64,000 bases of DNA from Norana najaformis. Lineage: Eukaryota > Annelida > Clitellata > Crassiclitellata > Hormogastridae. Position numbers and translations under genes: made by a program. Positions 4,490 to 26,400 of this stretch are shown in pieces. The first letter of the stretch is position 1. Every line of letters starts with the position of its first letter. The stretch spans positions 57,321,358 through 57,385,357 of the forward strand of contig OZ029913.1 in NCBI GenBank assembly GCA_964023275.1. The letters are read 5' to 3'. The notes under the pieces are model-generated. The model searched no databases and had not been told where the DNA came from. It saw only the letters and a list, made by a program, of their open reading frames with translations.

Positions 4490-5300
4490 TGACCCAGTTG
4501 ATAAGCGTCAGTGACCAGTGAAAGCAGAAGTGATCTTTCTGAATGACGTGTTGTATACACTTCATGGCAGCAGATAACGGTTTGTTTGTTCTGTGGTGTT
4601 TATATACGATGTTTGCCCATCAATGATTTTCTCAGGTGAAGAAAGGTACCAAAAAAATCAAGAGCATTTCCCCCACCACTGAAGACGATACTCAAATCAG
4701 ACAAAACACATGTACAACGTAAGTAAGTAGAATATAACAGAGAACAAAAACATCAATAAAGGGATTCCTGAAGATGTTATGAATCGTATTAGCTTATTTA
4801 TAAACTCTTCACAAGAGAAATTAGTTAACTGAGTCATTCTGAAGACTTCACAACAAAATAATGCAATGTAATATGCTTAATTTACCATGCAGACACCGCA
4901 ATGCATGATCTCAAAATAACCATAGTTCCGAGTGTATACACAAAACCAAGTAGCAACAAGCCACAGAGTTACACACAGGCTTGTCACAATATATTCAATT
5001 AGAAAGATTGGGAATATTAGGAAAGACATTGACTCACAGCAACAATTTTTCTATCAACAGTAACGAATATTTTCACAATTTTTCAACTCAGTGCAGGTCA
5101 ATGGAAAATACCAAATGATGACCTCGTTCATAATGCTAGAAAATTTAAGTTAAAACTGTAACAAGTTAAATCATAAGAACCAATCTCAATTAAAAGATGA
5201 AATTGTTCTATAAATATTGAGATATGTTCGCCACCGAGTCGAGCATATTATATTACAAAAACCAAGAAACATTTCGCTATAAATTTAAATGTGGCCTTAC
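4490..5300. other. Non-coding, probable first intron of the TLC-domain gene
   Basis: This is downstream of the GT donor at 5300-5299 of the minus-strand TLC exon. No further TLC exon could be identified with confidence. A minus-strand stretch near 4900-4960 encodes YGYFEIMH before a GT, but does not continue as a TLC domain. Confidence 0.4.
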
Positions 5301-5563
5301 CATGAAAGATCCCAAGTGCCTACGATAACTGCGTGAATCCATGAGATCAACAAGTTTCGCCACTTCCATAAATCGCCGTCTCCTTTCACGCCTGTCTTGT
5401 TGTCTTCCTTGACGCCGGGTGTGGCCTCAGAAGAAGCGTGGTAGGATCTCTTTAAAATTTCATTCAAAGTCTGGAAAAAAATAACTGACGATACAATGCA
5501 TCCAAAACCGTAAACGAGAGGTATTGGCTCCAGGTGTTCGTAAGTTTCATAAACAACCGCCAT
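5301..5563 (-). CDS. TLC-domain-containing protein, first coding exon
   Basis: The exon codes for an N-terminus beginning MAVVYETYEHLEP, a hydrophobic segment (LVYGFGCIVSSVIFF, first membrane helix), a polar loop, and the block WKWRNLLISWIHAVIVGTWD. That block matches the start of the TLC domain in TLCD proteins (W.WRN...S..H....G.W). TLC proteins are multi-spanning membrane proteins, and the TLCD branch is linked to membrane lipid composition. The exon ends at TTTCATG followed by GTAAGG (donor at 5300), leaving two bases of a codon. An upstream in-frame ATG at 5617 would add 18 residues. I prefer 5563 because the protein then starts just before the first hydrophobic helix, as in family members. 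Later exons were not found, so only about 87 residues are seen. Confidence 0.72.
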
Positions 5564-5775
5564 TTTGAAAATATTCGGCAATTCTGTTAAATAATTACCA
5601 CATACTAAAATATTCAAGCACAGCAGACGCCATCTTTGTTATGTCGGCAAGCAATTCTCGGCCTATGACTCAGGTCATCAGTTACCAATCATTATGTAGC
5701 GCTATGGTTTTAGGTCACGCCGCTCGCGCTGATATCGCATAATACATCACAAACGTACAACCACGATATCCAAAT
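5564..5775. promoter_or_regulatory. Probable promoter region of the TLC-domain gene
   Basis: Immediately upstream of the minus-strand TLC exon, this stretch has a locally raised CpG content (for example ACGCCGCTCGCGC at about 5718). It lies between divergently transcribed genes, the PARP gene starting at 8109 on the plus strand. No clear TATA box. Inferred from position and composition only. Confidence 0.3.
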
Positions 5776-6503: not shown

Positions 6504-7456
6504 CTAAGTTTGAATCCTACAAGTCCAGATAAGTAAGAAGATGGGGTTACAAAGAAGTTAAGGAAAGGGCACAGAACAGAGAGGAGTGGCATCTTTGGAT
6601 TCTTGGACCTGCCTAAGGGCAGAACACTGAAGAAGAAGAACATAAACAGTAACCTGTGCAGGCTTTGTCTCCATGCACTACTTGACACTTGCCTCTGGGT
6701 TCAGTCCTATCTCTCCTCCCATTCTTTCTCTGTTAAAACACCAGTCATGCCCTTTTTCTTGTGGAGTTCCACAGGACTTGCTACATTACCCCACTCAGTT
6801 CACTAACTGAAGCAATTTCAGTTGACCTTCGCCTCTATCCTGATGACACCCAACTATTCATCTCTTTTTGCATTGTTTCAACAACCAATCAGCTTCTTCA
6901 TGTGGTTAAAAAATCTCCTTCTAGATGACATCTAGTCTCTTGTGCCTGAACCCATCTAAAACTGAATTCGTACTTATTGGCCTACATGACCAGCTCACAA
7001 AATTTGTCTTTCCACCCATGACTGTATTATGCTTTCCAAAATAGCACAGATTGGATGAAATGGCATTTTGCTTGGCTTGCAATTACAGTCCTTGTTCTTT
7101 TTTGCTGGAGTGAGGATGATGATATAATTTATAAAACCACATCTTTATGGTGCTACTAGCATTATTCTTCACTTATATAGGCAACATTTCAATGTTGTAA
7201 TAAATCTGCTGTTTTGTTATCGTGAACAAAACATTATGGGGGTTTACATTTCATTGATACTTGTTGTTTTGAACAAGTACTTTAATGAACTGTAATTGGC
7301 CATAAATCAAGACAATTTGATGTTGGTAAATAAGGTTGGTAATCAGTGTTGAAATAGAAAGAATCACCCAAGAAACTGAGCTATAAAAAGTGGTCAGGCT
7401 GCTTGCGAAAATTCACAACAATGAAAAGAACTAAGTTTGAATCCTACAAGTCCAGA
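6504..7456. repeat. 26-bp direct repeats flanking about 900 bp
   Basis: The 26-bp sequence at 6504-6529 (starting CTAAGTTTGAATCC) recurs exactly at 7431-7456. The 901 bp between them contain the CR1-like reverse transcriptase remnant. This could be a target-site duplication created on retrotransposon insertion. Confidence 0.75.
6600..7080 (+). mobile_element. CR1/L2-like LINE reverse transcriptase remnant
   Basis: Across three frames the plus strand shows successive reverse transcriptase blocks: WVQSYLSSHSFSVK near 6697, a decayed GVPQGSVLGP-like segment near 6760, LYPDDTQLFISF near 6833 (the usual YADD is now YPDD) and LNPSKTEFVLIGL near 6950. The order and spacing match CR1/L2-type elements, where ..YADDTQLY.. 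is followed by LNPSKTEF. Frameshifts and stops make it inactive. Confidence 0.75.
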
Positions 7457-7514
7457 ACGATAGTGACTGCTATTGGGCTGAATTTAAAACATTTTTAGAA
7501 CTGTTTGGGGTGCA

Positions 7515-7805
7515 CATTAGTCTAGTTGTCTAGTGATTAGTCTGCTGGACTGTCAACCCACAGGTTCAGGGTTAAAATTTCTGACAGGGGCTGAAAGATA
7601 TTTTGAGATTTCATTTCCTCTTTTGCCTCCCCTTTTGGCAAATTTGGCTATAAAATAATGGTGGGAAGATTAGTTGGCAAGGGAGAGGACTGACCACCCA
7701 CCCCGTATACTAATTCTAAGAAGAATGAAGTCGTTAACACTTCTTGTCCATGGTTGCCTCCTGGGGTTAGCTTAGGGGACTGCTTTTCTTCATCTTTGTA
7801 ACTTA
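7515..7805 (+). mobile_element. tRNA-derived SINE, family A
   Basis: The tRNA-like head (GTCTAGTGATTAGTCTGCTGG, then GGTTCAGGGTT) is followed by the family body with TTTTGAGATTTC, GAGGACTG.CCACCCA and GAATGAAGTCGTTAACACTTC. The tail is CTTTTCTTCATCTT-like. Confidence 0.75.
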
Positions 7806-7825
7806 TATAAGTGAACTGTGGATTG

Positions 7826-7995
7826 TAATCGTAATCATAAACTCAAAATTTCTAAAGTGCTACTCAAAAGCTAAGCGCAAACCACTAGCTTATTCACGAG
7901 TGCTGTCTCAATTCCGTGGGGTTGTCCAAAGATGCCGTGTCAAGAACCAAGTCTGGTTGCCAGGAAACCAGAGAGAGGAGGGAGAGGAGTCTAGG
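7826..7995 (+). repeat. Dispersed repeat shared with 18620-18805
   Basis: Both places carry, in order, a TAATCGTAA run, a CTAAAG.GCTAC..AAAAGCT block, AGCTTATTCACGAG..CTG, a GGGGTTG.C..AGATACC-like block and GGTTGCCAG.A.ACCAGAGAG. This looks like the 3' tail of a LINE, since such tails in this window end in short TAAT/AATCGT runs. Confidence 0.6.
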
Positions 7996-8108
7996 GTGGG
8001 TTGTGTTTAAGCCGAGAGAAGTAGATTGTACTGTGCCATTGGAAACATGATGAAGTCATGCAAATTGTGTATTTTTCTGTGTTATTTTCCAGAGTCCTTG
8101 GTTAAACA

Positions 8109-8157
8109 ATGGCAACGGGTGTGAACAATCTGAAGCCTGTACCATCAGCTGCTTCAG
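8109..8157 (+). CDS. PARP gene exon 1 (start)
   Basis: Starts ATGGCAACGG after AAACA and codes for MATGVNNLKPVPSAAS, a short unstructured N-terminus. The donor is GTAGAG at 8158. One base of the next codon is left over and is used in frame by exon 2. Confidence 0.6.
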
Positions 8158-11100
8158 GTAGAGCATATTTGAAGATTATATGCAATAGCTTTGTCACAAT
8201 ATGAATTAAAATGCTTTTAATTAAAAGTTACGCATTGCTCCCAGGCATTTAAATGTTAATTTGTTTTAGTTTAATTGTCTTGCTGTTTTATATCAAACAC
8301 TGCGATCACAGAGTCAGTCGGTCTGACTCTGAATTGCACATAACGGTCTCACCACAGCCCAGCACAGAGTTGTGCAAAGCCCAGAGTTTGTGTGTTTGTG
8401 AAAGGGTTTGTTGTTTTGAGCCTACATGTGTTTGTGAGATCAAGATGACTGCAAGTCGAGACGTTTGCTGCTTTTAGAGCAACATAAGCCTGTAGACCCC
8501 GTTTCCTTCTTTTTGAACTATAACATCATTGAGAAGGCGCTATATAAATGTTTAGGCACATACATATATGTAATGATACATACAGTACAGTGCATACATC
8601 ACACATACGTACTTACATAATACCTGTGCCATGAAAACATTCTCTTACATATAGTTTGAGGTCCTTTGTAAATGTTTTACCATCTGTAACAGCATCATCT
8701 TCAGTTGCTGCTTCTGCCACTCCATCTGTCTTCATCCCCCCTGCGGACCACACAATTGGAACGTGGCTTTCTCTCGGCAGCTATGAAGAGGTCTTTAACT
8801 CGGACTTCGAGTACTGGGCGGTGACAAAGGTCCTGAATATGGGGGGAATGAAACTGGTGAAGATTCTAAAGATACACAATAACCTGCTGAAAGACAGATT
8901 CGACGAAGAAGTCAATCTTATTAAAAAAGGCCGAAATTCGGGTACTTAACTTATACTTTACCAATTAATCTAACATGGAAACTTCTTTTGCACTGTTATC
9001 CTAATGCACAAGGCATCAGTTGCTGGTCACACTCCTTAAATCCTTAAATTGCTGGTCACCTCTAAAGGAAAATGCATTCGGAAATCACACTCCTTAAATC
9101 CTTAAATTGCTGGTCACCTCTAAGGGAGAATGCATTCTGAAATCACACTCCTTAAATCCTTAAATTGATGGTCACGTCAAAAGGAAAATGCATTCTGAAA
9201 TCACACTCCTTAAATCCTTAAATTGCTGGTCACCTCTGAGGGAGAATGCATTCTGAAATCACACTCCTTAAATCCTTAAATTGATGGTCACGTCAAAAGG
9301 AAAATGCATTCTGAAATCACACTCCTTAAATCCTTAAATTGCTGGTCATGTCTAAAGGAAAATGCATTCTGAAATCACAATCCTTAAATGGACCAGTTAG
9401 CTCTGTTTGTTCATTGTTAAGTTATGCTGTAATCTAGTGGTTAACTTGTAGGACTGCAATTCAGAGGTCTGGAATTCAGTTCTTTCCACGCTAAGGAAGA
9501 TTTTCTAACGGTTAAAACTGACTTGCAATATTATCTATAGAGTATCATAAGTAGCAACCTATTTCTAGGATGTTTTACTTTCTTAATTATGTGTTGTCTG
9601 TATATTTTATTTCCTTGATTCATATTCATGATGTATAATAGTTATTGTTTGCTATACTATTCGATCTTGAAATACTTGTTACAGGATTCGATCCAAACAT
9701 CCAAGATCTCTACCATGGAACGAGTGAGCACTTGGAAAAGATCTGTCACGAAGGCCTTGATGAACGACTCTCCACTAAGGGCCACTTTGGCCGAGGCATT
9801 TACTTCAGGTGGGCAAAGAAATAACTGGAAAGTTTTAGTACTTGTCTTTAATTTTATATATATATATATATAAATATATTATATATATATATAGTGTTTA
9901 TTACTGTTACATAAGGCATTTATTGTTCCAAAGTTATAGGACTTGATCATTGCTTGGCACACGGGATTGTGGATTTTGTTTTAACAGGACGATTGTAACA
10001 ATGCAGGAACTAATGTTTTACTGAAATTACAGTTGGTGCAAATGGTTCCATATTTCTTGAATTACATCTTATGTAAATGATGCCATATTTAAATGTATAT
10101 TTGGTGTAAATAGCATCATAACTTGAGCAGGGTATAGTGTAAGGTTTACCTTACAGTTATTTGAATTGAGAGTAATGCAAGCATTATTAGAGCTCCCATG
10201 TGAAGTAACTCAAAGGCATTTAAGACTAAACCGTGTCTACAGCATATCAACGATAAACAGCTGGGACTGGCATTTGTTCTCTGCTTTCAGTGATAGCCCT
10301 GCATTTTGTCGAATCCACTCAGAAGAGAAGTCTCCTCCAAACCCATATCTCGTTCGATGCAGAGTAATTCTTGGTGATTGTAAGGTAAAGGGAGCTTCAG
10401 TACTGATTTAGTCACTTACGAATGTCATTATTAAAGAAAACTTCTGTACTCATTATTGCATTATTTAATTTAATTGGTCTTTTAATTACTTACGATTATC
10501 ATTAACTTAATCAGCAAAGATGTTTCTGTGCCCTGTAATTGCCTGTCATTGTCATAATTCTGTATCAGTAAAAGAACACTTTTCTGCTGATTATCGTTAT
10601 AATGACCTTCATCGTCAGAGACACCTTTTTTCATCCGACAGATTGTCTTTTGAATGAATTCTAAGATTTATAATTCTATTACAACTACAGCAACTATTGT
10701 ATTCAATTGTTCATTAACATGTGTTGATGAATTGCTACATAACTACACTATGTAAATTCATTAAATTAGGAAATTACTTAAATAAACTGTTTTACAGGAG
10801 CATGAACTACCTCTCTTGTTCCTGTACTGATTTTGTTTTGCTAGGTATCATGTGTACTTCTTGTAAAAAAATAATAAGTTGTGTACTTCTTGTAAAAAAA
10901 ATAATAAGTTGTTTAAAATCTGTGACACAAATGCAGTGACCAGTGTCTTCAGGATTTTTCTGCAATTACAGATTTATCCGCCTGGATCAAGCGATCCCTG
11001 TCTCACTAGGGAACCAGTCAAAGAAGTAGTTAGTGGGAAAAATGTCTTTTACGACTCAGTACAGGTGAGAGTCTTTGTTTTGTGATGTCTTTCCTTAGTG

Positions 11101-14100
11101 TTTTCAGTTTTGGTTTCATCAGAAAGTGAATTGATGAGTGCAGACATTTGTCCTTTTTGCATTTCATTTACCTCAGAATTTCGTTGAATTGGCTCTTTGT
11201 GTTTGTCTGTTTTGGGTTAGCCCAGGAACTTAAAGAATGTGATGTAAATTGTTATGGTTGAAATGTCTTAGAAAATAAAGTGTATTAAATCTTTATTTTA
11301 CATAGTTCAGTAGCAGCAAATTTACAAGGGCAAAGACAGATCAGCAGTTAATGTCAGTATGTGGAAATACATGGCCAGAGTATATGTCAGTGGAGTATAC
11401 ACTATGTCAAATGTCTGGAATACATATCACCTGAATATACACCATAAATGTCAGATGAATCATCGTGTAGACAGTAAATGGTATTGTTTAGTATGTACAC
11501 TAGACTAAACAAAAGAGCTACCTTTTTGGACAGCATATTTAGTAGATTGAAAAGGTGAGATGAACTCAAGAAAGACGATTCCAAAAAACGGTACAGGCTA
11601 GGAAACTTTGAAGGTGATTTTCTTGATCAGCAGCCCAAAATCCATAAGATACACCCAAAAGTGTTTAGGATGACTAATCTTCGTTGTCCAGTGTAATAAG
11701 TCCTTTATATAGCACCATTTTAGGAATCTTCTCAGTGATGCCTCTGACTTCAGAGCACCATGATCCCTTTAATGTACCAGTGCAGGGTGGGAGGTAATAA
11801 TAAGTGTCCTGTTGTTGGGTTGTCTTAGATCAGGGAATAGATCCTTTGACCCTTAGACCTCATTTCTACTGAGTTTGTTGCTGTAGGAGGAAGTAAACAG
11901 GTATGCTACCTTTTTAATGGTTAATGAAGCAAAGGCAGACTGAGTCTTTAGATATCAAGTAGGGTAAGGCTGGGTGACTTTAACTGTATGATTCAGGTGT
12001 TTTGTTTGTTAGGGTATGCCGGGTGGCTTCAAACAGTATGTTGTCTATGAAAAACGGCGTGCACTTATTCAGTATGTCATCTACTACACAGCAAGTGGAC
12101 CTCTTCCTTCTTTGCCCCCCATTCCGTCAACCACAGCAAAATCAGCCAAAAAGAAAAGGCCCAAGAGTAAGGAAAGGAAGTCAAGCACATCGTCACACAA
12201 CAGTGATTCTCGCAGGCATTCGAGCATGTCATCTGGAGATGAAAAAAGGAGCCAGAGAAGTGGAAGTGTGTCTTCTTCAGAAGGATGCGCTTATAGAAAG
12301 TCATCGGATGCAGACAGTGTAGACAGCGATGATGGGGCAACATGTTCTGGTAAAACTTCTCTTGATATAACCAAAAAAGACCAAGTCTTGTTGTCTCAAC
12401 CTCTGACCGACCCAGTTCCTGACGTGCCAAGAGTTCAATCAACAAGAGACCGCACGAGGCGCTTGATGAGTACAGGTAGAATGCTTGAACTGAAATACAC
12501 AAGAAACTCTTTATAAAATCCTCTGTTATAACATGAATTCTGGTATCACAAGTTCAGAGACATGGATCATAAATTTAGTTCAGCTTTCAAAATGATCTCA
12601 GTTTAACTTGACCTCATTGTAAGGTGGTTCCTAATATGATGGTTCCAAGGGCAGTGTTATAATGACTTCTGGTGTAGAAACTTCAGACATATCAAATTAT
12701 TAAACAGCCTGATGCACAACTGTTTAACACCTTCATTTGTTACCTTGAGCCTGTGGCACAACCATGTGCCAGGATCTCTAACTGAGTGATTTTCCACCCT
12801 GAAGTGGTATTTGTCAGTGGACTACTAGATCAGGGTATACATGTGTCATATCAAGTACCCTGCCATGACAGGATTGTATAATACTGAGGTCATATTCCAA
12901 AGCTGATCCATTTTCCCTGACTGCATTGTATCAGAATTTGTGTGTTAAGGAGGCTATATTGTATTTGTATATAAGTAAGTAATGCATTTGATAACACGCC
13001 ATAAATCCATCGACTGAGCAAGGAATCATATATGTACCAGTGTTAATTATAGTAATGCTGTTTATTGCAGGATTTATCGTTTCCCACATCAATCAACTGA
13101 AGTTTGTATTAAATGCCGTGACTCAGTTCAACTGATTGTTGATATACCTCTGTTTGGGCATATATCCGGCTTTCTTGCGGGAGGAACTGTACTGGTTACG
13201 CAAAAATGGATTGAGTTCAAGATCTTATTGCTTATGTGCAAATGTCCTGCAGGCTGTGCTTCATCTTTTCCTAGGGAGCTGTGTCTCAGTCTCTTCTGCA
13301 CCTGGCCACAGTTCCCTTTGCTCTGCTGCACAGAGGAACTTAGTTGTCCCTCCAGCCTGTAAAGTAAGTAAGTAAGTAATGCATTTGTTAACACGCCGTA
13401 TGTCCATCAACTGAGCGAGGAATCGTAGCCTGAACTTCCATGTTCCAGCATCAAAGCTGTGATCAGTCCGTCTTTCTAGGATAGGTTGTCAGAAACCTAC
13501 AGCGTGAGCTCTTGACCTTTCTCTGCCTCTGTTTGATCATGGTTTTGTGCTGTGAGATCAGGAGCACTTCTGATGAGTTTCTTTTAAAGTAGTGCTATAT
13601 AAATTTGTAATTTATAATTGCAATTGCAGTTATGTGAAGGCTTTAAGGTGTCTATAAATGGGATTAAATGTGGTATAAAACGGCTTAATACATAAATATG
13701 TACACGGAGGAAACATGCATGATTATTTCATACATACGTGCATAACTATCGGAGAATAGTGCTTTACTGTTGTATGAAGATAAAACAGTACTTTGGGCCT
13801 ATCAGAGACACCTCAAACTAAGGTGCATTAAGTGGCATTGTATGTATGCGTGTATGTTCTGGCTATTTGTTTTTAGCACTTTTTAGGAATCTTACAAAGA
13901 TGCTAAAGATAGCATCTTCTTTCCATTTCATCTCTGAATGAAAATTATGAGTTTACATTTAAAACCAGTTTTGTTGCATTTCCAGCTACTGCTACTAACA
14001 CTGCTTCTGGTGCTACCAGTGCTGATACTGGTGCTTCTGGAACTTCCATTGGTGCTTCCAGTGCTGTTGCTGGTGCTACCAGTGCTGGTGCAGGCACTAC

Positions 14101-16114
14101 CAGCCTTGCCACCGCAGATCCACGCACTGATGCCTACAAGAAAAAGGTGCAAGAAAATGCCATGAAACAGATGGTATGTGTTCATCTGCAGCACATTTAA
14201 AGAACCTCTCACAGTTGTTTTGGTATTCATTTTTTGACTTTTTGGGTTAGCCACTGTTTTTCTTAATGTGTAAACCACCTGTTATTTTGAAAGTGACAGA
14301 AAACGAGTTGTAACTGAAGAACTGCTTTGTCGTAGGAATTTGTTTTATTTACTATTCATATCCATAAATTGGAAATGAATGTTTAAAATTGACCACCATG
14401 TGACTTGGTGGTCTGTTTAGTAGTGCATTGGGATTGTAATCCAGTGATTGTAGGTTTGAGCCTGCTGAGTGGACTCTGTGTTATGACCTTGGACAAGTTG
14501 TTCTGCGCACTCATCTCACACCTCAGATTTAGATTTACGGACCTTGCACACATAACAAGTGCAGTATGCATAGACAAATATAAAAGTAACAGGATATGCA
14601 GTGCATGCCTATAGGAGTTCAGCTGGTTTGAATGAACCACTTATCCAAAAAAGGTTTGTGTATCTACTTGAATGTTAATAACCTAGTACTGTAATTTGAA
14701 TCCCCTTTAGGAACCCTGGCAATGATCTTTGTAATGTAATGTAGTACATAGTTTTGAAAACCATTCTACTGAGTATCAGATCAGTGATATTTATTTGCTG
14801 AGCAGGAAAAGAGAGTCGTGTAGCTAAAGTTTCATTTTCATTCTAAAACCTGCTTTGAATGATTTCACTCACGACTTGGATTGAAAGAGACACAATACAA
14901 GACAGGAACACCTGAAATTTGAAATGATTGAATGAATGAACTGATATCATCACGTAGAGCAACCTGAATAAATGAATGAAAAATAAATGAATGAATGAAT
15001 ACATGTGTCTGCTTCCAAAGCATCAAAGAGCAAGGAATTGAAGCTGTTTTTAACTCCATTTGCACATTGTGGTGTATCCTGCAGCTGGAACTCAAAGACA
15101 AATTGACAGATCGAGAGATGAACGAACTCTTTCGTTGCTACAGTCAAACATATGGTGGAGCAAATTCTCCTGGTTTACAGGAATTTGTATCTCCAGGTGG
15201 AGAAAGCTCAGTATCATCATCAGGTAAAGAAGTTTTAGTTTCATCAGGTAAAGAAACCTTAGTTTCATCAGGTAAAGAAACCTTAGTTCATCAAGTGGAG
15301 AAACCTTTGTTTCATCAGGTAAAGAAACCTTTGTTCATCAAGTGGAGAAACCTTTGTTTCATCAGGTAAAGAAACCTTTGTTTCAGCAGGTAGAGAAACC
15401 TTTGTTTCAGCAGGTAGAGAAACCTTTGTTTCAGCAGGTAGAAAAACCTTAGTTCATCAAGTGGAGAAACCTAAGTTTTATAAACTGATACATGTGAGGC
15501 ACAGTGGCCGATTGGATAAAGTATTCGGCTTGTATCATGGAGAATGCAGGTTCGAGCCTCCCCTTCGGATGGTTACTGTGTACAGATCTTCAGCAAGTCC
15601 TTTACTCACACTTCCTTAGTGCCATTGATTGATGCTTAGTCATTAGATAGTAGCACTTAATAAATGCAAAATAAATACAATTGGTGATGCCTTGGCTCTT
15701 TGCCTCTGAGTTAAGGGTTTCTGCTCACTCTTACAATTTTGTATAATGCACTTGTATTTAATTATGTGTAAGGTTCTGGAAAATGTAGTAACTGGAAACC
15801 TAGTCTTTGTGCTGTACATTTGGTCCTTTGGGTTGTTCCCCTACTGATATGACTACTAGCTTTGTTGAAGTTGACTATTCAATAAACAGCTTTCATTTCA
15901 GATCAACAGTTACTAAATAATCTGTCTGACAAGAATTTCTTGTTTTATTTTGTTCAAAGGAGCTGCTGATGATGTTCAGCTGATTATTGATACACTTGTG
16001 GAGGACTTTCGGAGTGTTGTCGGTCATGTTGACCCTGCAATAGCTCGAGAATACATCATACAGTTCAACATGGACGTCGAGGTGGCCATTAATGCTTATT
16101 TTGAAAGCATATAA
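8109..16114 (+). CDS. PARP-domain protein with C-terminal UBA-like domain, 9 exons
   Basis: Nine exons (8109-8157, 8705-8941, 9685-9808, 10291-10384, 10972-11064, 12013-12475, 13986-14173, 15085-15223, 15960-16114) have GT..AG borders and matching phases, giving 513 codons and a TAA. Residues about 20-225 form a PARP catalytic domain: HGTS with His106, GRGIYF with Tyr135, NPYLVRCRVILGD, VFYDSV and FKQYVVYEKRR. PARPs move ADP-ribose from NAD+ to proteins or nucleic acids. The position of PARP1 Glu988 is Gln207, which suggests mono-ADP-ribosylation or altered activity. Residues about 226-350 are Ser/Lys-rich with a nuclear-signal-like KSAKKKRPKSKERK. An Ala/Thr/Ser/Gly stretch follows. Residues about 463-513 resemble a UBA-type ubiquitin-binding fold (AREYIIQFNMDVEVAINAYF). 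The start is the only ATG found that opens the frame upstream of exon 2; earlier non-coding exons are possible. Confidence 0.82.
8705..8941 (+). CDS. PARP gene exon 2 (N-terminal part of catalytic domain)
   Basis: Acceptor ATCATCTTCAG, donor GTACTT. It codes for a linker and then the region preceding the PARP His motif, including YWAVTKVLNMGG and KILKIHNNLLKDRFDEEV. The latter corresponds to the 'v.kI.rIqN..L...Y' helix common to PARP10/14-type domains. A second possible acceptor lies 12 bases upstream. Confidence 0.8.
9031..9390. repeat. 58-bp minisatellite in PARP intron 2
   Basis: Units starting ACTCCTTAAATCC occur at 9031, 9089, 9147, 9205, 9263 and 9321, with a broken seventh at about 9379: an exact 58-bp period. 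Two unit variants (GCTGGTCACCTC and GATGGTCACGTC) alternate at units 3 and 5, so blocks of two units were duplicated. Confidence 0.9.
9685..9808 (+). CDS. PARP gene exon 3 (His and Tyr of the catalytic triad)
   Basis: Acceptor TTGTTACAG, donor GTGGGC. It codes for LYHGTSEHLEKICHEGLDER and GHFGRGIYF: the NAD+-binding His (H106) and the Tyr (Y135) of the PARP signature. Both residues are intact. Confidence 0.88.
9855..9893. repeat. TA microsatellite
   Basis: Alternating TA tract in intron 3 of the PARP gene. Confidence 0.9.
10291..10384 (+). CDS. PARP gene exon 4
   Basis: Acceptor CTGCTTTCAG, donor GTAAAG. It codes for SDSPAFCRIHSEE and NPYLVRCRVILGDCK, the beta-strand following the GRGIYF motif in PARP catalytic domains (compare ..LCRVLLG). 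It completes the Ser codon begun in exon 3 and ends in phase 0. Confidence 0.85.
10972..11064 (+). CDS. PARP gene exon 5
   Basis: Acceptor TGCAATTACAG, donor GTGAGA. It codes for 31 residues ending VSGKNVFYDSVQ. The FYDSV motif is the standard strand before the last catalytic strand of PARP domains. Confidence 0.85.
12013..12475 (+). CDS. PARP gene exon 6 (end of catalytic domain, Ser/Lys-rich linker)
   Basis: Acceptor TTTGTTTGTTAG, donor GTAGAA. It begins GMPGGFKQYVVYEKRRALIQ, where Q207 stands where chain-elongating PARPs have Glu, and then YVIYYT ends the fold. The remaining 120 residues are a polar, phosphorylation-prone linker: a basic KSAKKKRPKSKERK block, many SS/SR/SD pairs and an acidic DADSVDSDDGA stretch. 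Confidence 0.87.
13986..14173 (+). CDS. PARP gene exon 7 (A/T/S/G-rich linker)
   Basis: Acceptor TGCATTTCCAG, donor GTATGT. It codes for an imperfect repeat of ASGATSADTGASG type, then DPRTDAYKKKVQENAMKQM, a basic amphipathic stretch. The low-complexity DNA is GCT/GGT/ACT-rich and opens all frames here, so the frame is fixed only by the phases of the flanking exons. Confidence 0.75.
14400..14620 (+). mobile_element. tRNA-derived SINE, family D (short copy)
   Basis: The tRNA-like head GGTCTGTTTAGTAGTGCATT with B-box-like TAGGTTTGAGCCTG is followed by CTTGGACAAGTTGTT, as in the copies at 46185 and 56275 (minus). It lies in PARP intron 7. Confidence 0.6.
15085..15223 (+). CDS. PARP gene exon 8
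   Basis: Acceptor GGTGTATCCTGCAG, donor GTAAAG at 15224. It codes for a charged helix LELKDKLTDREMNELFRCYS and then a Gly/Ser-rich tail ending SSVSSS. The donor lies in the first unit of a 24-bp tandem repeat that copies the same donor downstream. Confidence 0.8.
15212..15478 (+). repeat. 24-bp tandem repeat carrying repeated splice-donor motifs
   Basis: About eleven units of the form TTTCATCAGGTAAAGAAACC follow the end of PARP exon 8. About five keep CAGGTAAAG, three have CAGGTAGA and three have CAAGTGGAG. Most units are 24 bp and a few are 23 bp. Confidence 0.88.
15495..15685 (+). mobile_element. tRNA-derived SINE, family B
   Basis: GTGGCCGATTGGATAAAGTATTCGGC with B-box GGTTCGAGCCTC is followed by the family body (TTCAGCAAGTCCTTTACTCACA, then ATTGATGCTTAGTCATTAGATAGT.GCACTTAATAAATG). 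It lies in intron 8 of the PARP gene. Confidence 0.85.
15960..16114 (+). CDS. PARP gene exon 9 (UBA-like domain and stop)
   Basis: Acceptor TTGTTCAAAG. It codes for 51 residues and TAA. VQLIIDTLVEDFRSVV is a predicted helix, and DPAIAREYIIQFNMDVEVAI with NAYFES has the spacing of a UBA/TAP-C type three-helix fold (A...L..~~~d~e~Ai~~y). This architecture suggests ubiquitin binding or an adaptor role. Confidence 0.82.
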
Positions 16115-17620
16115 AGTGTTTTTTAATCAGTCATCATTTAGCTACCAATATAACCCATTTCACCTTGAGTGGAACAGGAAGACAACCTGTTTTGCCCAGG
16201 GAGGTGAGATTCAAAACATTTCTCTGCTTTCAAAGGTCATTGGGATCAATTTATTATCCAAGGTGTAGGCAAGTCTGTATCTCACACGTGACCTTATCTG
16301 GTGTTTCTTTGGGCCTCTTCCTTCATACATGAGGTCACAGGTTCCTTTGTTAAATTTTAGAACATGTAAAAATATGAAAGTTATAAGTATTAAGCTGTAA
16401 TTGAAACCTAGTTTTAATGATGTTGCTGTGCTGCATCAGCTTTGAGCAAAATGTGCGGTGTGCGATCACAGCATTCTTTGGCATATTTTGGTTTTGTTTA
16501 TTACTGGCTGAACATTTATGTGTTGTGTCTTCACAGCCAATGGATTGTGTGAATTTGCCAGTGTATAGTTGAGCCTGTGAACCATGGGAAAAGGATATTT
16601 TGTTGCTGATTTCGTAGTTTTTCATTGTACAAAAGAGTTTTCAATTCTACTAGGGAATGTGTGAGCTCAAATGCTGACTGAGATTTGTGATTAATTGCCT
16701 AGGTCATGGTAGACCTGTGGCTGAATCAACACATCATACATATGGATTGGTCCTGATTCTGATGCCCTTTGCCGTTGCACAAACTTAAGTCTCTTATAAA
16801 TTGTAGGAAAGTGCCTTAAATGCAGGTCATGCTAAACAGTACTAACTGGGGCTCCAGAATTTCAGCTGTGTAGGGCCCGCAGTGGTCTCTCCAGGTAATT
16901 CAGCCATAGGTGCCAGCAAACACATCGATGAGGATCTTATATGGATCAAAGCTTTGATGCACCGTTCTTTTGCCTTTACCTTTCACCTCTGATTCTAGGG
17001 TTTGAATCCCAGTGTGTAGCATAATGTAAGGTAATATATGTACGTAATTGAATCGTCAGCTGAACTGACATCTTGTATTTCGAGTTATGTAACGTGTAAG
17101 GAGAGGTTGAGCTTAAGCCACGGGATCCTTTGACCACTAGAACATCTTTGATGGCTAATACGTAATAAAGGATCAGTTACGATACTTTCTGTAATCAGAG
17201 CTTGCTGCAAGACTTGTTTTGAAATTCAGTAATCTGATGACGTCGTGGACAGCTAGAAAGTAATCAGGAATCGCTTCCTCAGTTTTAGTGAAACGGAAAT
17301 CTTTGACTGCATGAATTGCCAATCAGTTTCTCTTGCAGTATGGTTTGAAAAATTCTGGTGGTTGCTCTGTTTACGTGATATGATTTTGTCATAACATTTG
17401 CTGCAAATGTTGGAAGAACTGAAAGCAGCAGCTAGACAGGCTTTATTAGCATTTCATTGTAATGTGCTGCCAGTCACTGAGTATGTAAATGAAAATGTAC
17501 ATGTGTTTCTATAGCAACCATATATGGCTTTGACCCTGTGGGTGGTGCACATCAAGCATTATGTTGTACTGTATTGTTGTTACAAATAATTAATTATTCT
17601 AATACACCAGACACTCATTA
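16115..17620 (+). other. PARP 3' UTR and downstream spacer
   Basis: No second gene is visible. The transcript end is not resolved and I could not pick a convincing AATAAA. Confidence 0.4.
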
Positions 17621-20149: not shown

Positions 20150-23095
20150 AAAGAAAGAAAAAAAGGAAGAAAAATTAAATGGGCTTAAGTACAGCCCTTA
20201 GCAAAATCAATCATCATAAATTCATCCAATCTATGATGCAACATAGATAACTCAATGTTATAGTCACGACATAAATGCAAAATTTCATCATTATAATAAT
20301 CTCCTGTACAGCAGGTATTTAGAATACTGTTATCATAGCTTCCAAATAAAATCCTAGCAGAAAAATGTATTTTTCGCAGATGCATGATATGTATAAGATC
20401 CATACGTCCCATAAAGTACTGAACAATTCTAACTGATTCCCATTTATGCATCTTGAAAATCTTCCTATAGATATTATTCCAACATACATTTAACTGTTGG
20501 AGTTGAGCTGCTGATATGTTTATAGCCTCTAACGCATAGATTAACACTGGTAAAACAAAAGATTCTAATAGACTCAATTTTACACATTCAGATACAAATC
20601 TCTAGTGACTAAATATGGCATTTGCAGTAGCATAGAACCGTTTAATAGCAACCCATATGTCAATTTTAAATTTTTTATAACAGATAAAGTATAATCCCAG
20701 GTACTTCAACTCACTCACCCATTTCACAGAGTCTGTGCCCATGAATAGATTACTTACTTGTCTACTCCAACATGGACCTACACATAATAAGTTGGATTTT
20801 CTTGCATTGAATATTATATCAACCTCCGCACCCTTCTGAAAGCATATATCAATCATAACTTGAAGTTGGCACAAAGAGGCAGACAGTAAAATTATATCAT
20901 CTGCATATGCAAAACATCCAGCATAGGTGTATCCAATGTGGCAGCCAATATCCAACCCTTCCAAGGCATTGATAACCACATCCATGTAAATATTGAAAAA
21001 GACCGGAGAAAGAATGCCACCCTGCCTAATTCCACTTTTAATTGACGTTTGCGCCGAGAGTGTGTTATTCCATTTTACCATCACAAAGATTTTACCATAC
21101 CAGTCAGCAATAAGTTTAACCATTCTTGCAGTTAAACCTTTATTTATTAGTAGTTCTAATAACTTGACATGATTTACCCGATCAAAAGCTTTCTTTGCAT
21201 CAAGAGATGCCATAAAAACACTGCTCCCATGAGATACAAAAAAATCAACAACTTGTCTTAGTGCAAATATAGCATGTGTACAACTTAAATGTTTCTTGAA
21301 CCCAAATTGCAACTCACTAGATGTTAACTTGTCTCCAAATTTAAATAACAGGCAATATTCAAACACTTTGGATAAGACAGGGCTAATAGTAATAGGCCTA
21401 TAATTGTCAGAAGATGTTATATCACCACATTTATCTTTAATAATGGGCACCGTTATCCCTATTCCAAAGTCACCCGGAACAAAACCATGAATATAAATCA
21501 TTAAACAAAAGCTTTAAGTGAACAATAATAGCTGGATGACAATATATTATGTGTTCCTTGGTTAACCCATCCATGCCACAGGCCTTACCATTTTTTAGTG
21601 AATTAATGCTCTTTTCTACATCTTCTATATTAAATATGTTAAAACTATTGATAGCATCATATTCAGAAAGAAATTTAGAATGAAGACTATCCCAGACCTT
21701 TATAAACCTATCACCATCCTCATAAAAGTCAAAACTATTCTGTGCAAAGCTCCTGTTAAAGGTTTCTGCAATATCTTGATCATTCATCTTACCATTTACG
21801 TTAGTTGGAATATGGTTTCGTTTAGAAAATTTATTATTCCATTTCTTCCAGAATTTATTCATATCTTTGGCAATATAAAGTTGAGCTATTTCGTCATCCA
21901 GATCCATCTCCTTACATTCAGCACCATGTCTAGTAGCTAATTTATATTTGTATTTACAAACTCTACGTAGATTATAAATTATTCCAGATTTCGGTTTACC
22001 ACACACTTCCCACATATTATGAGCATCAACTGACTCTTTCTTCAAATCCCTGAGCTCAGGGCTCCAATAATATTTTAAAGAGTTCTCTTTTAGAAAGGGA
22101 ATTGATCTATCAGCAGCTTGAGACATTGAGTCAACCAAGGAATAGTAATAATCATTTATAGACTGCCAATGATTACATTTGAATAGATCACAATTACAAG
22201 ATAGGTTATCATATGGAACATACATCTTTTGTAACAAGCTACCACTTAGTGCATATTACCCTTATCCCATCTTCTCACTCCCACTTTATTTTCACTAGTA
22301 TTATTCAGGCCCCTCAACTTTATTGGCATATGTAGATCCTTCAAATCTAAACAACAGGTTACTGGAAGGTGGTCAGAGAGATTTAAAATATTTTCATCGA
22401 TATTATATTCTACAAGTCTTACAAACAGCTTCTTGTCCATAAAAATGTGATCAATCCACGAATGATGCCCAGTAGACTCTTTAATGTACGTGTATTTATC
22501 ATCATATGTACATATCTCTTTTCCATTAATTAAACTGAAATCATCAACAAGACTGTGAAACAGTCTAAGTCCCTTATTATCAATTCGACATTCAAAGTTC
22601 ATATCCCCTAAGATAATCAAGCCATTTGCATCACACGACTGAATGTAATTCTCTATAAATCCAAGGCATTCCAACAACTTGGTCTGATATTTTAAACTCG
22701 CCTCATAACATGGAAAATAAACTATAATAATTAACAATTGAAAGCCACCTCTAAGGGTGAGTTTAAGCGATGCACAGCGACAGTCAGATTGAACCATGAC
22801 ATAAGAAACATCAAAATTCAGGCTTTTCCTAACTAGTAGTCCTAACCCTCCAAAAGGCCTTCCCATAAGACCAGTTTCAAGTCTCTCGTCCATTGCTGAC
22901 CAAGCAAAGCCCTGGAAATCACCATGAAAATGCAAGATTTTGTCTAAATCATGTTTCCCAAGCCAATGTTCCTGAACAGCAATAATATCGTTAGAATTAC
23001 ACAACTCCTTTAGAAACACACTACCTTGGTTATACCCATACATATTGTAGGTTGTAATTTTTATGGCCATATCCATCATTGATTATTAGTAGACT
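20150..23095 (-). mobile_element. Nearly full-length CR1-group LINE
   Basis: Read on the minus strand from about 23095. 23079-22246 encodes an AP-type endonuclease (TTYNMYGYNQG at the start, VQEHWLG, ILGDMNFE, and SDHLPVTCCL near the end). 22237-21470 is the linker into the reverse transcriptase (NGKACGMDGL). 21501-20602 holds the palm (LDAKKAFDRVNH, SGIRQGGILSPVFFNIYMD, FAYADDIILLSAS), and 20577-20185 is the C-terminal region. The order EN-RT without RNase H fits CR1/L2-type elements; the exact clade is not settled. Two frameshifts (near 22243 and 21490) and one in-frame TAG (near 20600) break the frame, so the copy is inactive but young. No ORF1 was seen. The 3' end runs into an A/T-rich tract at 20140-20175. 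Confidence 0.88.
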
Positions 23096-24989: not shown

Positions 24990-26400
24990 ACTGCCAGATT
25001 TGCAGGACCTTCTCGTCATCGTATCTCATTTTGCAAACAACTGAATTCAATAGATGAGGTTTAGTGTGCAGAAAGGCATGAAAACTACGTATTTCTTTTT
25101 TTGAGATGCTTAACCTTTTAAAATTGCCTCTTCGTTTTACTGGGCGATCAAGTATAAAAATGACTTGAGATGGGCAGAGCTTCAAAATGTTGATGGAACT
25201 CTTAACTGCAGATCGAAAGGCTCGAGAACTTACACCTGCACCAGATTTGTGCTCTGAAGAAGTCACAAATGAATCCTGATCCTTAGAACAAGAATTTATT
25301 TTCATTTCTTACTGGGAATTCTTTCAAAAACTGACACTGGCATCACGTTCACTTCTGCTCCTGTGTCGATTTTGCAGCTGATTTGTTTACCATTCACTAC
25401 TATAACTTTCCACCAAGTACTTTTAGAATCCATATGCTTAGAACAAGAATTTATTTTCATTTCTCCAATATCCAGCTCCTTCTTGTCATGTTCTAGAGTG
25501 TCAGTAGCTGATCCCAATGAGCTGCGGGGTGATCCTTCTTCATCGGTTTCCCTCACGTTCCTCCTGTTGGAAGATCTACACATCTCCAAAATAGTTCTCT
25601 TTTTTACATTTGAAACAAGTTTTTCCAAAGGCTGGACACTGCGTAGGTGAATGTCTGGTTCCACGCTTTACACAAATGCTTCTGTTTGAGCTAAATTCTC
25701 TGTTGTTCCTTCTTGGCAAGGAGTCTTTTTCTAATTTAATTGGATTTATGGCTGTTGTGTCTTCACCTCTGATCATCTTTGCAGTGGCTTCTGCTGCTCT
25801 GCAAATCTGTAGAGCTTTTGTCAACGACAGATCTCGTTCTCGTAGACGAGAGTCTGTACATCCTAGAACCACTCTATCCCGAATTAGTGATTCCTTCTGA
25901 TCACCAAATTCACAGGTCTTTGCACGGTGCCGCAAAGTTGTAACGAATCCATCTATGGATTCACCAGGAGCTTGTGAGAACTTCCAAAACTGGAATCGTT
26001 CAAAAACTACATTTTTTCTTGGCGAACAATATTCTTTAAACTTTACTTTAACTGCCTCAATTTTATTCTTGTCCTCTTCCGGTTCAAAGTTGAATGTGTT
26101 AAGCACACGGAGTCCTTCGTCACCGATCGCGCTCAGGAACATCGCTACTTGAATTTTTCTGGAAGCTCATCAAAGCGCGAGGCAAGAAGGAATAAATCAA
26201 ATTTCTGTAGCCATACTTTCCAAGCTTCTTCTACGTTTCCTCCCTCGAGTTTCAGCGCCGCTGGCGGTTGAAATCCTTTGTAGTGTGCATCGGCCATTGT
26301 TCCAATTTCGATTGCAACGTTATGTTTCAAAATGTTCACAGCGGTCCAGATAATTTCGTTTTCTGATTCTTACGAGAATATCTAGTCGACTGCGCCATGT
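24990..26400 (-). mobile_element. Ty3/gypsy-type retrotransposon remnant (gag-protease)
   Basis: On the minus strand 26339-25576 resembles a gag protein (WKVWLQKFDLFLLAS, FKEYCSPRKNVVFERFQFW, PGESIDGF, then a Cys-rich region FGKTCFKCKK). 25664-25302 holds an aspartic protease core (KIDTGAEVNVMP). The reading frame shifts between the parts. Reverse transcriptase, RNase H and integrase are absent. 25305-24988 starts with a repeat of the MKINSCSK segment already present at about 25440-25466, so the 3' part is rearranged. Just upstream, near 26384-26399, TGGCGCAGTCGAC looks like a primer-binding site. The copy is incomplete and inactive. Confidence 0.75.

What the first reader, a model, noticed from the sequence alone, without database searches (positions are those of the whole stretch)
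8109..16114. PARP catalytic domain joined to a C-terminal UBA-like domain, with a Gln in place of the catalytic Glu
Nine phase-consistent exons give a compact protein: PARP fold first, then long Ser/Lys and Ala/Thr linkers, then a UBA-like end. The triad reads H106-Y135-Q207. The Gln sits in FKQYVVYE, where PARP1 and tankyrases have Glu in NEY/AEY. Human PARPs with substitutions here (Ile, Leu, Tyr, Val, Thr) are mono-transferases or inactive. A Gln triad with a ubiquitin-binding-like tail is not an architecture I know, and suggests an enzyme or adaptor linking ADP-ribosylation to ubiquitin.
Basis: partly seen in the sequence, partly recalled or inferred. Interest (0 to 1): 0.78.

Follow-up and report, generated by a model that had tools for sequence, protein, structure and literature searches.

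The report
PARP-like enzyme with ubiquitin-binding-like tail
A gene from what looks like an animal genome appears to encode a small relative of the ADP-ribose-adding PARP enzymes with an unusual glutamine in its active site and a tail that resembles ubiquitin-binding domains, so it may add single ADP-ribose units to ubiquitin-tagged proteins.

Summary
Nine GT-AG exons (8109-16114, + strand) join in phase to a 517-residue protein with a PARP catalytic domain (PF00644, E 3.1e-11) and a C-terminal UBA_4 domain (PF14555, E 1.2e-6; exon 9 ORF alone 4e-8), above Pfam's cut-offs. Q211 aligns with PARP1's Glu and PARP12's Ile.

The claim of novelty is only partly right. Papers record one Gln-triad PARP (Tetrahymena) and UBA-bearing PARPs (Acanthamoeba, Trichomonas PARP6/8 type). 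PARP1 E988Q, the same substitution made in the laboratory, is a working mono-ADP-ribosyltransferase. My paper searches showed no animal protein with both features, but they saw listings and passages of open-licence papers only.

Best reading: a mono-ADP-ribosyltransferase with a PARP12-like catalytic domain, steered by ubiquitin; a dead adaptor is the main rival. Two more pocket residues may be changed (C147, H150). No orthologue was found in collections that hold no animal genomes, structure prediction was uninformative, and the exon 6-to-9 link lacks transcript proof. New variant of a known kind; interest moderate.

The parts
8109..8157 (+). exon 1 coding part (start codon; in-frame TAA 6 bases upstream)
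8693..8941 (+). exon 2: Ala/Ser leader and N-terminal part of PARP domain; alternative in-frame acceptor at 8705
9685..9808 (+). exon 3: H110 (HGT motif) and Y139 (GRGIYF motif)
   Evidence: PARP hit on this ORF alone, E 2.9e-4, below cut-off
10291..10384 (+). exon 4: PARP domain, C147 and H150 in the donor pocket region
10972..11064 (+). exon 5: PARP domain
12013..12475 (+). exon 6: Q211 in FKQYVVYE, end of PARP domain, then Ser/Lys/Arg-rich linker; read-through ends at 12516
13986..14173 (+). exon 7: Ala/Thr/Ser/Gly linker built partly on a 21-base tandem repeat
15085..15223 (+). exon 8: linker before the UBA-like domain; donor lies in first unit of a 24-base tandem repeat
15960..16114 (+). 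exon 9: UBA_4 domain (residues 477-516) and stop codon

Best explanation
A single intact gene of what looks like an animal genome encodes a 517-residue mono-ADP-ribosyltransferase. The PARP domain (residues about 68-230) would bind NAD+ through H110 and Y139; with Gln instead of Glu at 211 it should transfer one ADP-ribose and not build chains, as PARP1 E988Q does. A long basic, serine-rich and then Ala/Thr-rich linker carries a C-terminal UBA_4 domain (477-516) that would hold ubiquitin or ubiquitylated proteins and so choose the substrate. Shown: open, phase-consistent gene structure, domain matches, residue identities. Inferred: that it is transcribed as one mRNA, NAD+ binding, mono-transfer, ubiquitin binding, substrate choice.
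For: Gene model and phases; exon/intron G+C contrast; PF00644 and PF14555 above curated cut-offs; UBA_4 hit on the exon 9 ORF alone; nearest solved structures are three PARP12 catalytic domains, best E 3.5e-9, two of the three named mono-ADP-ribosyltransferase; Q211 in the column of PARP1 Glu, PARP12 Ile, PARP13 Val; HGT and GRGIYF motifs kept; E988Q alters PARP1 to mono-ADP-ribosylation (passages of PMC5552275); most Clade 3 PARPs lack the Glu and are thought by the authors to be mono-transferases or inactive (passages of PMC2964712); no AATAAA between 12516 and 14967, and exon 7 has in-frame ATGs only in its last few codons, which speaks against a separate downstream gene.
Against: No activity or binding data and no transcript data. 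Two more positions near the nicotinamide pocket differ (Ser to C147, Tyr to H150) in 3 of 3 four-way runs and 3 of 3 PARP12 runs, although 3 of 3 pairwise runs with PARP1 pair them with Cys and His; the roles of those residues are recalled. ATTAAA sites at 12699, 13108 and 13663 leave room for a short transcript. No orthologue found. AlphaFold without alignment: full length pLDDT 35; UBA piece pLDDT 85 but two long helices, where a UBA has three (recalled), pTM 0.53, and no Foldseek match at E <= 0.001. No PDB sequence match of the UBA piece below E 0.2.
Confidence: 0.5

Rival explanations
1. Pseudoenzyme adaptor: the PARP fold is kept but no longer transfers ADP-ribose (as reported for PARP9), and the protein works as a scaffold that binds ubiquitin.
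For: Third triad residue lost and, in the four-way and PARP12 alignments, pocket Ser and Tyr replaced by Cys and His; low identity to PARP12, 29%; PARP9, of Clade 3, is reported inactive.
Against: His and Tyr of the triad and the HGT and GRGIYF motifs are kept, unlike PARP9 (His lost) and PARP13 (Tyr in the His column, four-way runs); Gln at this place still supports mono-transfer in PARP1.
Confidence: 0.27
2. Two products: exons 1-6 make a PARP protein that ends at 12516 by intron retention or early polyadenylation, and exons 7-9 belong to another transcript or only to a minor isoform.
For: Exon 6 reads through to a stop at 12516; exon 6 donor is only moderate, 93rd percentile; the exon 6-to-7 intron is the longest, 1510 bases; ATTAAA at 12699; ATGs at the end of exon 7 or at 14995 before exon 8 could start a short UBA-like protein.
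Against: Phases fit at 6/7, 7/8 and 8/9; no AATAAA between 12516 and 14967.
Confidence: 0.15
3. Poly-ADP-ribose polymerase in which Gln replaces Glu without loss of chain elongation.
For: Gln is close in shape to Glu; the domain is otherwise PARP-like.
Against: PARP1 with this very change makes mono-ADP-ribose; the nearest solved relative is named a mono-transferase in two of three entries.
Confidence: 0.04

Closest known systems
PARP12 / Clade 3 mono-ADP-ribosyltransferases
   Same: Best match among solved structures (2pqf, E 3.5e-9); non-Glu third triad residue.
   Different: 29% identity; Gln instead of Ile; no WWE or CCCH zinc finger found by Pfam at E <= 1; [quoted passage not shown] lacks the proline two places before the triad residue that PARP12 and PARP13 have.
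UBA-bearing PARP6/8-type proteins of Acanthamoeba castellanii and Trichomonas vaginalis
   Same: PARP domain plus UBA domain in one protein (passages of PMC4245714).
   Different: Those are Clade 6, of an amoeba and an excavate; position of the UBA and triad residue not seen in the passages; the present PARP domain matches PARP12 best among solved structures.
Tetrahymena thermophila Q24C77
   Same: Natural Gln at the third triad position.
   Different: Catalytic domain is C-terminal with no other known domain; a ciliate.
PARP10 (ARTD10)
   Same: Mono-ADP-ribosyltransferase with ubiquitin-binding motifs in the same chain.
   Different: UIMs placed before the PARP domain, with an RRM; Ile triad.
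PARP1 E988Q (laboratory mutant)
   Same: Same residue at the same place; mono-ADP-ribosylation.
   Different: Engineered, in a DNA-damage PARP.

Membership tests
PARP (ARTD) family, PF00644 | profile match above the curated cut-off | tested here: met
   43.6 bits against 26.7
PARP (ARTD) family, PF00644 | triad His and Tyr | tested here: met
   H110, Y139
PARP (ARTD) family, PF00644 | triad Glu (of the polymerase subtype) | tested here: not met
   Q211 in the Glu column; many family members also lack it
Clade 3 PARPs | closest relatives in Clade 3 | tested here: inconclusive
   best solved-structure hit PARP12, but no tree was built and only chains in the PDB were compared
Clade 3 PARPs | proline one residue away from the third triad residue (majority of animal members) | tested here: not met
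   F209 where PARP12 and PARP13 have Pro; feature, its exact place taken from PARP12 and PARP13
UBA_4 (PF14555) | profile match above the curated cut-off | tested here: met
   28.6 bits against 21.8 in the full protein, 33.3 for the exon 9 ORF
UBA_4 (PF14555) | three-helix UBA fold | tested here: inconclusive
   single-sequence model shows two helices; no significant Foldseek match
UBA_4 (PF14555) | ubiquitin binding | not testable with these tools
   needs a binding assay
mono-ADP-ribosyltransferase | transfer of single ADP-ribose units | not testable with these tools
   needs an enzyme assay

The most novel reading that the evidence does not exclude
A previously undescribed animal PARP subfamily has fixed by nature the Glu-to-Gln change known from the PARP1 E988Q mutant and joined it to a C-terminal UBA_4 reader, giving a one-chain writer that mono-ADP-ribosylates ubiquitylated proteins or ubiquitin itself.
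Probability: 0.2. Interest if true: 0.65.

Novelty: new variant of a known kind. Interest (0 to 1): 0.42.

Why it matters
Cross-talk between PARPs and ubiquitin is an active field (ADP-ribosyl-ubiquitin, Deltex ligases, PARP10 ubiquitin-binding motifs, passages of a 2025 review). A small natural enzyme with both a mono-transfer active site and a ubiquitin reader would let the order 'ubiquitin first, ADP-ribose second' be tested directly, and a natural Gln triad would show what selection makes of the textbook mutant.

Tried and rejected
Relatives: tblastn of the PARP domain in 50,697 phage records gave none at E <= 0.1. Three viral-contig scans gave 2 pattern matches (window PARP domain), 248 (alignment of it with PARP12) and 5 (PARP12 segment alone); none of these was confirmed by tblastn at E <= 1e-3. 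One scan of prokaryote genomes gave 11 pattern matches, none confirmed. These collections are viral, phage and prokaryotic, so they do not speak to animal orthologues. The whole genome of the window is not held. PHROGs: 0 families. NCBIfam: only a glutamine amidotransferase model at E 0.018, 14.3 bits against a cut-off of 264, taken as chance. Pfam hits below cut-off taken as chance: eIF_4EBP (E 0.02, residues 206-271) and CBP30, FAM70, PPP4R2, New_glue, Herpes_capsid, FAM199X and Gag_p17 on single ORFs. PDB search with residues 408-517: 57 distinct sequences at E <= 10, best E 0.042, mainly fibronectin-type monobodies matched through the linker, TDP2 at 0.79. With exon 9 alone: 4 hits, TDP2 UBA (E 0.23), DCN1 (0.51) and two sterol-carrier chains (0.61, 0.70); none significant. 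Structure prediction of the full protein is useless (pLDDT 35); of the UBA piece inconclusive (Foldseek 18 matches at E <= 10, none at E <= 0.001, the UBA of EDD at ranks 8-9 and a CUE domain at 16). A search for the names HYQ or H-Y-Q motif or triad: 0 papers.

Full report
Observation. Reading 7000-17500 and rebuilding the exons in a script gives nine exons, 8109-8157, 8693-8941, 9685-9808, 10291-10384, 10972-11064, 12013-12475, 13986-14173, 15085-15223 and 15960-16114. The eight introns are GT-AG, the eight phases fit, and the product is 517 residues with no internal stop. An in-frame TAA lies 6 bases before the ATG. Exons have G+C 0.42-0.52 and introns 0.30-0.38. A second acceptor 12 bases further on (8705) would explain the shift (read; inference).

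Domains. Pfam gives PARP PF00644 at E 3.1e-11 over residues 68-228 and UBA_4 PF14555 at E 1.2e-6 over 477-516, both above the curated cut-offs. So that the result does not rest on chosen splice sites, eight unspliced ORFs were scanned: the exon 3 ORF alone hits PARP at 2.9e-4 (below cut-off), the exon 9 ORF alone hits UBA_4 at 4e-8, and six of eight hit neither. The full protein scores 43.6 bits for PARP against 20.8 for exon 3 alone. Among 177,635 distinct PDB sequences, 34 match the PARP domain at E <= 1: PARP12 best (3.5e-9), then tankyrases (4.9e-5 and weaker), with PARP13 (0.014) and PARP4 (0.24) only weak.

The triad. In MAFFT alignments with PARP12, PARP13 and PARP1 chains, Q211 stands with Ile, Val and Glu in 3 of 3 four-way runs, with Ile in 3 of 3 runs against PARP12 and with Glu in 3 of 3 runs against PARP1; in 3 of 3 runs against PARP13 alone it faces a gap, and there the His is misplaced too. 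His and Tyr are kept. The four-way and PARP12 runs also place C147 and H150 where those chains have Ser and Tyr; the runs against PARP1 alone pair the two with Cys and His, so this is tentative. That the Ser and Tyr touch nicotinamide is recalled.

One gene or two. The link from exon 6 to exons 7-9 rests on splice phases, on the lack of AATAAA between 12516 and 14967 and on the scarcity of starts for exons 7-9: ATGs only at the very end of exon 7, or at 14995 before exon 8. Against it stand a moderate exon 6 donor (93rd percentile), a 1510-base intron, ATTAAA sites at 12699, 13108 and 13663, and an open read-through to 12516. Transcript reads are needed.

Structure. Folding the whole protein without an alignment failed (pLDDT 35). 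The UBA piece folded at pLDDT 85 as two long helices, pTM 0.53, and Foldseek found nothing at E <= 0.001 among PDB chains. This neither supports nor refutes a UBA fold.

Function. PARP1 E988Q is used as a mono-ADP-ribosylating enzyme (passages of PMC5552275). In the 2010 survey of eukaryotic PARPs most Clade 3 members have Ile, Val, Met or Leu, five have Ser or Thr, one has Glu and one, Tetrahymena Q24C77, has Gln; the authors expect mono-transfer or inactivity (passages of PMC2964712). Mono-transfer is therefore the best guess here, with a dead adaptor next. The UBA-like tail suggests recruitment by ubiquitin, as PARP10 has UIMs that recognise ubiquitin (passages). The linker holds a basic run (AKKKRPKSKERK) that looks like a nuclear localisation signal (impression, not tested).

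Novelty. Links of PARPs to ubiquitin domains are well recorded: UBCc, U-box, RWD, UIM, and UBA in PARP6/8-type proteins of Acanthamoeba and Trichomonas (passages of PMC4245714). The 2023 re-annotation of human PARPs holds no word beginning with UBA (word search only). Paper searches for the combination saw, as listings, 20 of 85 papers, 17 of 18, 12 of 12, 20 of 31, 0 of 0, 2 of 2 and 12 of 14; none listed or opened describes it in an animal as far as the titles, abstract starts and passages show, but the library holds open-licence papers only and most were not opened. The catalytic domain in front with a long tail is unusual against human and mouse PARPs, where only PARP4 does not end with it (passages of PMC1266365). 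The proline mark of most animal Clade 3 PARPs is missing, so I do not file it in Clade 3. It is a PARP family protein of unusual architecture: a new variant of a known kind.

Limits. That the genome is an animal's is an impression (many short GT-AG introns; a LINE-like element), not tested; the species is unknown. No animal genomes are in the collections searched. Conservation of the Gln, which decides how interesting this is, was not testable here.

Noticed in passing
15217-15472: The exon 8 splice donor lies in the first unit of a 24-base tandem repeat (10.8 copies). Units two and three repeat CATCAG|GTAAAG at 15248 and 15272 in the same phase, so alternative donors could add 8 or 16 residues before the UBA-like domain, and repeat-length alleles could change the linker (inference).
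   Followed up: partly
14007-14103: Part of the exon 7 linker is coded by a 21-base tandem repeat.
   Followed up: partly
9027-9389: 58-base tandem repeat, 6.3 copies, in intron 2.
   Followed up: no
20185-23082 (- strand): LINE-like element: reverse transcriptase (RVT_1, E 6.3e-31, ORF 20602-21513) and endonuclease (Exo_endo_phos, E 2e-10, ORF 22246-23082); the neighbouring ORFs 20185-20601 and 21470-22255 were not scanned.
   Followed up: partly
25302-26166 (- strand): ORFs that look to the eye like a retrotransposon Gag and protease; no Pfam hit at E <= 0.01.
   Followed up: partly
5297-5638 (- strand): ORF that looks to the eye like the start of a TLC-domain membrane protein, divergent from the PARP gene; no Pfam hit at E <= 0.01 for this ORF alone.
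   Followed up: partly
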